Shown here: piece after piece, positions 671 to 4,578 of the stretch
Layout: every line of letters starts with the position of its first letter
How positions within the stretch are numbered: position 1 is the stretch's first letter
IMG/VR virus record: IMGVR_UViG_3300021197_001653
Location: 1-64,000 of that record
From: a virus
DNA length: 64,000 nt
Reading direction: 5' to 3' (one strand)
Notes under the pieces: generated by a model
What the model saw: the letters and a program-made list of their open reading frames with translations, nothing else
Databases searched by the model: none
Told to the model about the DNA's origin: nothing
Translations under genes and position numbers: made by a program

Positions 671-921
671 AATATTCTTTTTATTTCGTTATTAATATTT
701 GTTTTATATTTTGCATGTAATATTCTTTTCTTAACTCTACATAATAATACTTCAAAACTTCTTTTTGTATAATAATTAAATTTAGGATAAAGCATTTTAA
801 TTATTAAATTTTTATCCCATACATCGTTGATATTCATTGATAATAATATATCTATTAAACTATCTGTAATTATAGGAGCTGTTAATTGTCTAGGTCTTGA
901 TACACTTTTTATATGTTTCAT
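667..921 (-). CDS. Small basic soluble protein, unknown
   Basis: An 84-residue leftward ORF, soluble and rich in Lys and Arg, with a C-terminal helical half (KRSFEVLLCRVKKRILHAKYK) that could bind nucleic acid or a partner protein. It overlaps the start of the 476-670 gene and shares its first base with the stop of the 921-1637 gene, so three genes are stacked without gaps. The middle part (residues 18-60) resembles a small helix-turn-helix by spacing, but I cannot confirm a fold. No family recognised. Confidence 0.6.
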   Translation of the reverse strand: MKHIKSVSRPRQLTAPIITDSLIDILLSMNINDVWDKNLIIKMLYPKFNYYTKRSFEVLLCRVKKRILHAKYKTNINNEIKRIL

Positions 922-1637
922 TATAATTTTTCTTTAACCCATTGTTCACTTAATTGTGTCCCATGAAATGTCCATGATTTCTTACAATGAGATGTATTAT
1001 ACATCGCTTGTGCACCGTCTAAGAAAGCTAATTTACATTTTACTTCCATTTCCTTTCTATCCCAACTATCCTTAATTGGATGAATAGTTATTGTGTTATG
1101 TGAATCTATTTTAAGTTTATAATCATGTAATTTTAAAGGATTATTAAATGGATTATTATAGTCCTTATTAACAGGTTTATACTCAACCATAACCTTATCA
1201 ATACCACCTTCTTTACAATATTTTTCAATAAATGCTTGTGATGGTTGAGGTAAACTATCTTTATAAAACATAGCTTTATATGTTGCAGTAGCTATTTTTT
1301 CTATTTTCAAAGATTTATCAGTAGTTGCTATGATTTTTCTACATTTATATTGTACAATTGAATTAAAATCTTTAAAATTAGACCAAACACTATTTCTATT
1401 AGTGTTACTAGTGGCTTGATATATCTTATTTAAATATATAAACCAATCACCTTCTTTAATTTCTTCATCTGTTGTGAAGTATAGGTGTTGATAAGACATA
1501 TATTTACTTGTATCAACAGCATGATTATAGAAATGTTTATTAGATTTATGTATTAATAAATCTAAACTATTATTATAAATAATATCTGTCTTTTCTTCTG
1601 TTGGTAACATTATTACCTTTGCTCTTTTAAGTTCCAT
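921..1637 (-). CDS. Conserved Bacteroidota-phage protein of unknown function
   Basis: A 238-residue leftward ORF. The sequence style is familiar from many gut and Bacteroidota phages: an N-terminal KRAKVIMLPTEEKTDI segment, a central TTDEEIKEGDWF segment, then CRKIIATTDKSL, a LPQPSQAFIEKYC segment and a C-terminal KDSWDRKEM segment. Such proteins often occur in several copies per phage, but no activity is known to me. It is the first leftward gene after the large gene-free block at 1640-2507 and starts with ATG at 1637. No leftward promoter of the Bacteroidota type was found directly upstream, so it may be transcribed through the structured block. Confidence 0.8.
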   Translation of the reverse strand: MELKRAKVIMLPTEEKTDIIYNNSLDLLIHKSNKHFYNHAVDTSKYMSYQHLYFTTDEEIKEGDWFIYLNKIYQATSNTNRNSVWSNFKDFNSIVQYKCRKIIATTDKSLKIEKIATATYKAMFYKDSLPQPSQAFIEKYCKEGGIDKVMVEYKPVNKDYNNPFNNPLKLHDYKLKIDSHNTITIHPIKDSWDRKEMEVKCKLAFLDGAQAMYNTSHCKKSWTFHGTQLSEQWVKEKL

Positions 1638-1639
1638 TT

Positions 1640-2507
1640 GTTTACTTTTAAGATTATTACTATAAGCTGAGTGTTGACTTATTATATTATCATTTTATAT
1701 TGTTTCCAATATTATCACACACAATGTATTACTACATGTAGATAACATACTCACGATTTAAAGTCATCGCGACTTATTACTATAAAGTATATAAGTTCAT
1801 TTTCATACCAACTTCCTTACGGGATTCAAAGACTGTCATCTTTTAGATAAATATTATTCAATTCCTTCATATCAAGTCTTGCGAACTATTAATGTCATCA
1901 TATTGCAGATGAATAAGAGTATTGTAACTCTATAGTCTAGAAGTGTTTTGCTTTTTTTTTATGCTTAAAAATAAAAATAAATGATTGGATTAGATAGAAG
2001 TCTCTTCTAGTTGTATATCGTACTGTCTTTTGAACAGCCAAAGATACCAACTCCTATCTATTTTCAGGTGTCACCCTTACTAACTTAATTACTATTTCAT
2101 CCCCATATTTCTATGATGATTACTATTGCAATTATAATAACAACTTCGCTTCTGACTGGCAGCTACTATCATTATTTATTAAACTATTTATTGGTAATTT
2201 CTTACCTCAATATCCCTTTCCATTAAGATATATATAACTCTCCTACTCTGATGAGCCATTCCAAATTATACATTGTTTAATACCTTTCAGTGACATGCAT
2301 ATATAAATGCATGGCAATAAGACTACTCATTTAATAATAGTTTCTTATCACTTTATTCCATTACTGGGTTATCCTACGGCTACGAAGGCTAGCCATTTAC
2401 TATTTACTGTTTGTTATTCCTTATACATCAGATTACATGTATCTCTAGCTTCTTTTTGTTTCAGGATTTCCGCTTTCCCCCCTAATACAACGCTCACTGT
2501 TGTATTA
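1640..2507 (-). ncRNA. Candidate large structured non-coding RNA block
   Basis: About 860 bases with no convincing gene on either strand, flanked by leftward genes. It is locally much richer in G+C than its flank (24 of 60 at 2341-2400 against 10 of 60 at 2521-2580). On the minus strand I can draw many hairpins. There is a 9-bp stem at 2483-2491/2499-2507, stems at 2423-2428/2437-2442 and 2378-2382/2390-2394, and a 7-bp stem at 2294-2300/2307-2313. Two stems are closed by GAAA tetraloops (2193-2197/2202-2206 and 1697-1702/1707-1712). A stacked rod spans 1991-2060, and a bulged stem spans 1773-1795. A perfect 6-bp pairing joins 2290-2295 with 2069-2074 and would enclose a ~220-base domain. T-rich sequence near 1957-1980 (minus strand) could end one RNA of ~530 bases. 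The size resembles phage-borne GOLLD or ROOL RNAs, but class membership is not shown. Confidence 0.5.
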
Positions 2508-2711
2508 TTTTATTTTAAAAATTATTATTAATATACAACAAATTAAACCTATTATGTATATTATTGCAGATGCATTAAATAATTTATTTATTTTAGAATA
2601 TAATTTATATCCATTTTCACTCCATCCATGATCACTATATTCATAGTGACACCAATTTATTATACTTATAAGTACAATTATTAATGTTGATATTATTAGA
2701 TATTCTTTCAT
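2505..2711 (-). CDS. Small two-helix membrane protein
   Basis: A 68-residue leftward ORF with hydrophobic segments at about residues 4-20 and 47-66, separated by a polar stretch rich in Tyr, His and Ser. Its stop codon lies inside the last base pairs of the 9-bp hairpin that begins the structured block downstream. The hairpin could therefore protect the mRNA end or begin the candidate RNA. No family recognised. Confidence 0.55.
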   Translation of the reverse strand: MKEYLIISTLIIVLISIINWCHYEYSDHGWSENGYKLYSKINKLFNASAIIYIIGLICCILIIIFKIK

Positions 2712-3410: not shown

Positions 3411-3507
3411 AACTCTCACAAGGTTCCACCTTGCTATTAACTACAGATTATAAATGTGTATTTGCAAATTATGCATTTAATAAATATCCTTACGTTGGAT
3501 GAGAGTT
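3411..3507 (-). promoter_or_regulatory. Structured RNA element, closed three-way junction candidate
   Basis: An inter-gene segment whose ends pair perfectly over 8 bp (3411-3418 with 3500-3507, minus strand AACTCTCA and TGAGAGTT). Directly against this stem is a 5-bp hairpin CAAGG-loop-CCTTG (3419-3423/3429-3433). The rest contains an AT-rich palindromic stretch around 3470-3479 that could form a third arm. On the minus strand it ends ~28 bases before the ATG of the 59-residue membrane gene. The layout is that of a cis-regulatory RNA or small riboswitch-like element; no known class is recognised. Confidence 0.4.
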
Positions 3508-3520
3508 TTTAGTTGCATAA

Positions 3521-4084: not shown

Positions 4085-4400
4085 TTGTTTTATATTTAAT
4101 TATGTTAATGTATAAAATATAGATATTAAATCCCCTTTACTTGTCATTGACTCACACCTAATTTAAAGAGATAAAATAGTGCTTTAGTATTAATATCTAT
4201 ACTAAATATAACTAAGGTGTAATCTCTATAGATTAAGTTTAACTAACTATACCTTGTTATGTGATAATGATTATTTTTAGCTATAGTATTAATGAAGAGA
4301 ATGATATTTTGATTACTTACCCGATTGGATAAATAGGTGAGATAGGATAGTACCACCCTTACATACCCTATCATATCAAACCCTTCACAATACCTTGTGT
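4085..4400 (-). other. Gene-free region with nested hairpins
   Basis: About 315 bases between leftward genes with no convincing ORF. On the minus strand several pairings are visible. GATAGG pairs with CCTATC in the segment 4338-4373. A 5-bp stem with a 4-base loop lies at 4221-4234. A 7-bp stem TTAGTAT/ATACTAA lies at 4173-4194 and is itself flanked by an ACACCT/AGGTGT pair. This could be a 5-prime leader or a small RNA. The signal is weaker than in the 1640-2507 block and much of the rest is simple AT-rich sequence. Confidence 0.3.
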
Positions 4401-4401
4401 G

Positions 4402-4578
4402 TTAGTTCTTGCTAAATTTAACAAGTGGTTTATTCTTACCTTCAGTAATGGAAGTTGTAGCCATATTAAGCATACCTAAGACTTCCATTTGGTTCTCTGT
4501 ACCTCTTGAACACATTGATAATTCTAATGGTCCTGAATCAGGTCCTGTTACTGTAATAGTTAATGTTCTTTTTTTCAT
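4402..4578 (-). CDS. 58-residue soluble protein, unknown
   Basis: Leftward ORF, ATG at 4578 and stop at 4402-4404. The product is soluble: a beta-like N-terminus (KKRTLTITVTGPDSGPLEL), a central helix with several Met residues (QMEVLGMLNMATTSI) and a basic C-terminus. A rightward ORF on the opposite strand is judged a shadow because its product is not convincing. It sits downstream of the terminator that closes the 147-residue gene, so it may depend on read-through. No family recognised. Confidence 0.55.
   Translation of the reverse strand: MKKRTLTITVTGPDSGPLELSMCSRGTENQMEVLGMLNMATTSITEGKNKPLVKFSKN

What the first reader, a model, noticed from the sequence alone, without database searches (positions are those of the whole stretch)
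1640..2507. Candidate large, ornate structured RNA in a crAss-like phage
A phage this gene-dense has an 860-base block without a credible gene. On the minus strand it folds by eye into at least nine hairpins: one of 9 bp, one of 7 bp, and two closed by GAAA tetraloops (2193-2206 and 1697-1712). A perfect long-range 6-bp pairing joins 2290-2295 with 2069-2074. Parts are 40-50% G+C beside 17% flanks, as expected when structure is selected. The purine-rich minus strand and GNRA loops favour leftward RNA. Size and phage context recall GOLLD and ROOL RNAs, but I do not recognise the class. It could be one ~530-base RNA ending near 1960 plus a second domain.
Basis: partly seen in the sequence, partly recalled or inferred. 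Interest (0 to 1): 0.85.

Follow-up and report, generated by a model that had tools for sequence, protein, structure and literature searches.

The report
GOLLD-type giant RNA in crAss-like phage
The gene-free block in this gut-phage relative encodes a large, intricately folded RNA that is a distant cousin of GOLLD, a phage RNA known to assemble into hollow RNA cages, and the same RNA turns out to be a long-kept, apparently overlooked component of many crAss-like phages.

Summary
The block is real and holds one large structured RNA on the minus strand, at window 1663-2397 (735 nt). Its 3' half matches the whole Rfam GOLLD model (RF02032, positions 1-416) at E=5e-16 locally and 1e-17 genome-wide. 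The score is 64 bits, below Rfam's 150-bit gathering cut-off. A motif from its 5' half, outside the Rfam model, hit 75 viral contigs. 72 of them carry the GOLLD 3' domain downstream, and the other 3 run off the contig. In 24 non-redundant full-length homologues, 124 of 165 consensus pairs show compensatory double changes (shuffles: mean 87, max 96), and the window keeps 154 of 165. A 138-position model built without the window finds it at 9.6e-25. The phage is crAss-like (Crassvirales, nearest phi14:2). The RNA tree separates crAss-like carriers from other large phages. I found no report of GOLLD in crAss-like phages in the papers searched. The last 110 nt (2398-2507) are a separate small conserved module. 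A cage-forming mechanism is inferred from homology only.

The parts
1663..2397 (-). GOLLD-type large structured RNA, full extent by homology (735 nt)
   Evidence: RF02032 full-length match to the 3' part; full-length alignment and covariation with 23 homologues
2059..2397 (-). [quoted passage not shown]
   Evidence: Outside the Rfam model; motif search recovers 75 contigs, 72 with the 3' domain downstream; 5' profile built without the window finds it at 3.3e-38; 67 covarying pairs of 88
1664..2058 (-). 3' domain, the part that forms the ring in GOLLD env-38; matches RF02032 1-416
   Evidence: 64.1 bits, E=5e-16 in 1.2 kb and 1e-17 in the genome, below the 150-bit gathering score; 3' profile built without the window E=4.9e-59
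1955..1992 (-). AU-rich variable linker after the first long stem of the 3' domain; in relatives this place can hold a tRNA gene
   Evidence: Alignment; tRNA inside the RNA span in L208, L210, L211, L224, L225, L227
2378..2394 (-). 5'-terminal hairpin GGCUA-GCCUUCG-UAGCC; all 5 pairs covary
2193..2206 (-). GAAA-loop hairpin, conserved in nearly all homologues
2101..2119 (-). Hairpin with loop AGAAAU, invariant in all 24 sequences; plausible counterpart of GOLLD L11a (GAAA)
1993..2058 (-). First stem of the 3' domain (9 bp) enclosing the UUCAAAAGAC hairpin
1895..1912 (-). Hairpin with loop UGCAAUAU, short compared with canonical GOLLD and diagnostic of this clade
1875..1887 (-). Hairpin with loop CGCAA, very strongly conserved
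1828..1843 (-). Counterpart of GOLLD L21a; stem covaries, loop is GACA here and GGCA, UGCA or CGCA in most relatives
1697..1712 (-). GAAA-loop hairpin AUAUUG-GAAA-CAAUAU, covarying
1664..1680 (-). 3'-terminal hairpin with conserved CUCAGC end
2403..2482 (-). Separate upstream module (GGGGGG..AAUCC, AGAAGCUAGAGAUACAU..AUGUAUAAGGAAUAACAAACAGUAAA)
   Evidence: Shared with Cellulophaga phage phi14:2 (no GOLLD there), L009 and L259
2483..2507 (-). 9-bp hairpin at the upstream edge of the block; followed by a T-rich run when read on the plus strand
921..1637 (-). Next gene downstream, 238 aa, unknown function (phrog_15656)
2505..2711 (-). Gene upstream, 68 aa, no confident family

Best explanation
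Window 1663-2397 (minus strand) encodes a single non-coding RNA of about 735 nt, homologous to GOLLD, in a crAss-like phage. Shown here: full-length homology of the 3' domain to the GOLLD covariance model, a conserved covarying 5' domain coupled to it wherever the contig is long enough, a variable linker at the GOLLD position, and a tree that suggests vertical maintenance in crAss-like phages. Inferred: it is transcribed leftwards in the run of minus-strand genes. Its 5' domains form caps and its 3' domains form rings of a closed homo-oligomeric RNA cage, as solved for GOLLD env-38, with the linker inside, probably late in infection. What the cage does is unproven. The most likely role is a protein-free compartment that concentrates or shields a cargo (tRNA, ribosomal particles or other molecules) during takeover and lysis. 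My probabilities: GOLLD homologue 0.97, homo-oligomeric cage 0.7, this class of function 0.35.
For: RF02032 match over 1-416. The same model rings full-length in 10 motif-retrieved relatives at E 1e-12 to 1e-26; the only other match in that search of 48 records, besides the window itself, is a canonical GOLLD at 288 bits. Of the 75 contigs with the 5' motif, 72 have a 3' domain and the 3 others are truncated. Covariation: 124 of 165 pairs with double changes and 857 such cells against a shuffle mean of 254, max 286 (separately 114 of 144 pairs). Model R1, built without the window, finds the window at 9.6e-25 and nothing else significant in it. R1 gives no hit in 24 control loci or in 13 named crAss-like or crAss-related phage genomes. 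tRNAs sit in the linker of relatives, as noted for GOLLD by Kretsch et al. 2025 (PMC12286853). The RNA tree follows phage lineage.
Against: The score is far below Rfam's gathering cut-off (64 against 150 bits). There is no tRNA in the window; one tRNA-Met lies at about 99.9 kb of the record. The L21a loop that forms the symmetric kissing contact B8 in GOLLD env-38 is GACA here, not self-complementary at the GC/CG dinucleotide. No transcription data exist. No terminator was seen between the RNA's end and the gene that starts about 26 bases downstream. A sequence-only clade profile does not reach a canonical GOLLD (L103), so the link rests on the covariance model plus shared architecture.
Confidence: 0.93

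Rival explanations
1. An unrelated new class of large structured RNA that resembles GOLLD only by convergence.
For: The Rfam score is below gathering; sequence-only profiles do not join it to a canonical GOLLD; some loops differ.
Against: The full-length, end-to-end model match at E 1e-17 recurs in dozens of relatives at up to E 5e-36. Conserved GOLLD signatures (UCAAAAG loop, AGCAAAA, CGCAAG, CUCAGC end) come in the same order, and relatives have tRNA in the linker.
Confidence: 0.03
2. Two adjacent RNAs: one of about 530 nt ending near 1960 and a second domain downstream.
For: There is a low-complexity AU stretch at 1955-1992, and the 5' and 3' parts form separate domains in GOLLD.
Against: The 5' and 3' parts co-occur in 72 of 75 contigs. 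The break lies inside the Rfam model, at the known variable linker.
Confidence: 0.03
3. A decayed or frameshifted protein gene.
For: It lies in a gene-dense phage region.
Against: No ORF with a family match; the covariation and the indels of all lengths in homologues are typical of RNA, not codons.
Confidence: 0.01

Closest known systems
GOLLD RNA (Rfam RF02032; cryo-EM of env-38 in Kretsch et al. 2025, PMC12286853)
   Same: Two-domain architecture, 3' domain matching the whole model, variable linker at the same place, conserved GAAA loop in the 5' domain, phage-encoded, similar length; relatives carry tRNAs in the linker
   Different: Scores 64 bits against a 150-bit cut-off; clade-specific short hairpin with loop UGYAAUAU; L21a loop GACA; no nearby tRNA island; lies directly behind an extra upstream module; host phage is crAss-like
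ROOL RNA
   Same: Large phage-encoded RNA, cage-forming in vitro, often near tRNAs (PMC12286853)
   Different: No Rfam ROOL match here at any threshold tried; sequence and structure distinct from GOLLD according to PMC12286853
GOLLD-type RNA in Lak megaphages (Lak-A1, Lak-B1)
   Same: The clade model hits both at about 1e-16; shared CUUAUUC..CUGYAAUAU..ACAU motif in Lak-B1
   Different: 5' domain only weakly alignable; phages of about 540 kb

Membership tests
GOLLD (RF02032) | 3' domain fits the covariance model along its full length | tested here: met
   1-416 of 416, E=5e-16 in 1.2 kb and 1e-17 genome-wide
GOLLD (RF02032) | Score at or above the curators' gathering threshold (150 bits) | tested here: not met
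   64.1 bits; all 5'-motif relatives scored also fall below it, main matches 45-123 bits. Hence described as a divergent homologue or variant, not as a standard member
GOLLD (RF02032) | Large RNA with a separate, more variable 5' domain joined to the conserved 3' domain | tested here: met
   735 nt; 72 of 75 5'-motif contigs have the 3' domain, the rest are truncated
GOLLD (RF02032) | Variable linker inside the 3' region, sometimes holding a tRNA | tested here: met
   AU-rich linker 1955-1992; tRNA inside the RNA in six relatives, none in the window
GOLLD (RF02032) | Encoded by phage or prophage | tested here: met
   crAss-like portal, capsid protein, terminase and crAss_CARG1 domain
GOLLD (RF02032) | Often near tRNA islands | tested here: not met
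   No tRNA in the window, one tRNA-Met near 99.9 kb of the record; an 'often' feature, not a requirement
GOLLD (RF02032) | Self-complementary L21a dinucleotide for contact B8 | tested here: not met
   GACA in the window; GC dinucleotide kept in 17 of 24; identification of the loop rests on the cmscan alignment
GOLLD (RF02032) | Closed 14-mer RNA cage | not testable with these tools
   Needs cryo-EM or mass photometry
GOLLD (RF02032) | Expression rising during lysis | not testable with these tools
   No transcriptome available
ROOL | Match to the Rfam ROOL model | tested here: not met
   No match
Crassvirales (phage) | crAss-like portal, capsid protein and terminase | tested here: met
   Portal 57% and capsid protein 62% identical to phi14:2; PHROG and Pfam matches

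The most novel reading that the evidence does not exclude
A GOLLD-type RNA is an old, vertically kept component of a large part of the crAss-like phages. It has drifted in its cage contacts (B8 lost in the window's branch), so it may form a cage of different stoichiometry. In this phage it is fused behind a second, independently occurring small RNA module to make a compound transcript.
Probability: 0.3. Interest if true: 0.75.

Novelty: new variant of a known kind. Interest (0 to 1): 0.6.

Why it matters
GOLLD is one of the largest and least understood bacterial RNA classes and forms an RNA-only cage. Finding a coherent, strongly covarying clade in crAss-like phages extends it to one of the most studied phage orders, supplies dozens of diverse full-length sequences including the 5' cap domain that Rfam's model lacks, and shows that Rfam's cut-off hides the clade. 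With a culturable crAss-like phage carrying it, expression, deletion and cargo could be tested directly.

Tried and rejected
Rfam at gathering thresholds found nothing; only a relaxed, short-region scan revealed GOLLD. Nucleotide BLAST of the block found only short pieces in Lak phages and phi14:2. The first motif, from the block's upstream end, led to unrelated genes plus phi14:2 and L009, which showed that this end is a separate module. The downstream protein as bait gave 79 loci; among the records of these that were tested, only one (G034) carries a GOLLD, a canonical one. Named crAss-like genomes (crAss001, DAC15, cr10_1, cr52_1, cr85_1, cr108_1, cr111_1, ProJPt-Bp1, phi14:2 and others) have no match, so it is not universal in the order. 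A Bacteroidetes-type promoter pattern gave no site near the RNA and no more sites than chance; sigma-70-type matches are uninformative at this A+T content. Prokaryote genome contigs gave no match to the clade motif. L009's gene-free stretch has no meaningful Rfam match. I considered a hammerhead-like ribozyme in the upstream module and rejected it by eye because an invariant core base is missing.

Full report
Observation. The block 1638-2504 has no credible gene; the only listed frame is a 74-aa plus-strand ORF without family matches. The G+C contrast is weaker than stated. A single-sequence fold is only modestly better than shuffles (z -1.95 on minus, -0.77 on plus), so comparative evidence had to decide.

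Identity. Rfam at gathering thresholds finds nothing. With relaxed filters, 1664-2058 minus matches GOLLD (RF02032) from first to last model position, 64.1 bits, E=5e-16, and 1e-17 in the 104-kb record. A motif shared with a Lak megaphage retrieved 12 viral contigs. RF02032 rings full-length in 10 of them at 1e-12 to 1e-26. In that search of 48 records the only other match, besides the window's own, is a canonical GOLLD at 288 bits.

Extent. Aligning these relatives showed that homology continues upstream through a 5' domain that the Rfam model does not cover. A pattern from that domain alone hit 75 viral contigs. 49 of them (44 new contigs plus 5 already known) have the RF02032 3' domain full-length. 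A clade model built without the window, R1, finds it in 23 more, one of them cut by the contig end. The remaining three (L116, L127, L171) end before the place where R1 would match. The RNA therefore starts with hairpin 2378-2394 and ends near 1663.

Structure. In 24 non-redundant full-length sequences (A1), RNAalifold gives 144 pairs, 114 with compensatory changes. A RIBOSUM-scored fold of the same alignment gives 165 pairs, 94% standard, 124 with double changes (shuffle mean 87, max 96) and 857 double-change cells (shuffle mean 254, max 286). Sliding partners by 1-3 columns drops pairing to 35-45%. Both domains contribute (67 of 88 and 57 of 77 pairs), and the window itself keeps 154 of 165 pairs. 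Cautions: the structure was predicted from the same alignment, so the slid control leans in its favour, and the shuffles do not keep relatedness. R1, which excludes the window, scores it 128.7 bits, E=9.6e-25 (rough calibration), and has no hits in 24 control loci.

Phage and distribution. The window's portal, capsid protein and terminase are crAss-like, nearest Cellulophaga phage phi14:2 (portal 57%, capsid protein 62%), and a crAss_CARG1 domain is present. Of 50 records tested, nearly all carriers, 26 have a homologue of this portal, at 24-58% identity apart from the window's own. In the RNA tree, carriers with that portal and large contigs without it fall apart: the main clade of 33 holds 17 portal-positive and no portal-negative carriers, and a clade of 14 holds 11 portal-negative and no portal-positive ones, support 0.9 and 1.0. 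This suggests long vertical maintenance with few transfers; portals at 24-27% identity may belong to sister lineages rather than to Crassvirales proper. Named gut crAss-like genomes and phi14:2 lack it, so it is patchy. In the open papers searched, none links GOLLD to crAss-like phages; most subscription papers were not searchable.

Function. GOLLD env-38 forms a closed 14-mer cage with 5' caps and 3' rings; its function is unknown. The conserved two-domain fold, GAAA loops and linker make a homo-oligomeric cage the most likely state here too, but this is inference. One contact differs: the loop matching L21a is GACA in the window, whereas 17 of 24 keep the GC dinucleotide needed for the symmetric contact B8.

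Upstream module. 2403-2482, with a 9-bp hairpin before it, is not part of GOLLD. It recurs without GOLLD in phi14:2 (about 99.8-99.95 kb) and also in L009 and L259. In phi14:2 and L009 a terminator-like hairpin with a T run follows it (by inspection of the sequence). Whether the window makes one compound transcript is unknown.

Noticed in passing
window 3411-3510, minus strand: A second candidate small structured RNA: AACTCTCATCC ... CAAGGTGGAACCTTGTGAGAGTT closed by a 7-bp stem. The exact 3' motif occurs in 23 viral contigs, nearly all with the same 5' AACTCTCATCCAATT start and a variable middle; no meaningful Rfam match.
   Followed up: partly
window 2403-2482 minus; L002 about 4330-4450; L009 55-180; L259: Conserved module AGAAGCTAGAGATACAT..TGATGTATAAGGAATAACAAACAGTAAA that occurs alone (phi14:2), just before another RNA element (L259), or before GOLLD (window); possibly an independent small RNA or a leader.
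   Followed up: partly
L009 55-1035: About 1 kb with no ORF over 42 aa and several strong hairpins (twice a terminator-like hairpin with a loop close to ATGGTTTACARTCTGTATTAGTCAGG); may hold another large structured RNA.
   Followed up: no
L208, L210, L211, L224, L225, L227: tRNA genes (Ser, Leu, Asn) inside GOLLD-type RNAs, mostly in large phage contigs without a crAss-like portal.
   Followed up: partly
Lak-A1 about 176.6 kb, Lak-B1 about 485.6 kb (L005, L004): Lak megaphage genomes carry the same GOLLD-type RNA, in records without annotation.
   Followed up: partly
L256 7110-7512: ARAGORN reports a tmRNA in a 19.8-kb viral contig; probably a false call, not checked.
   Followed up: no
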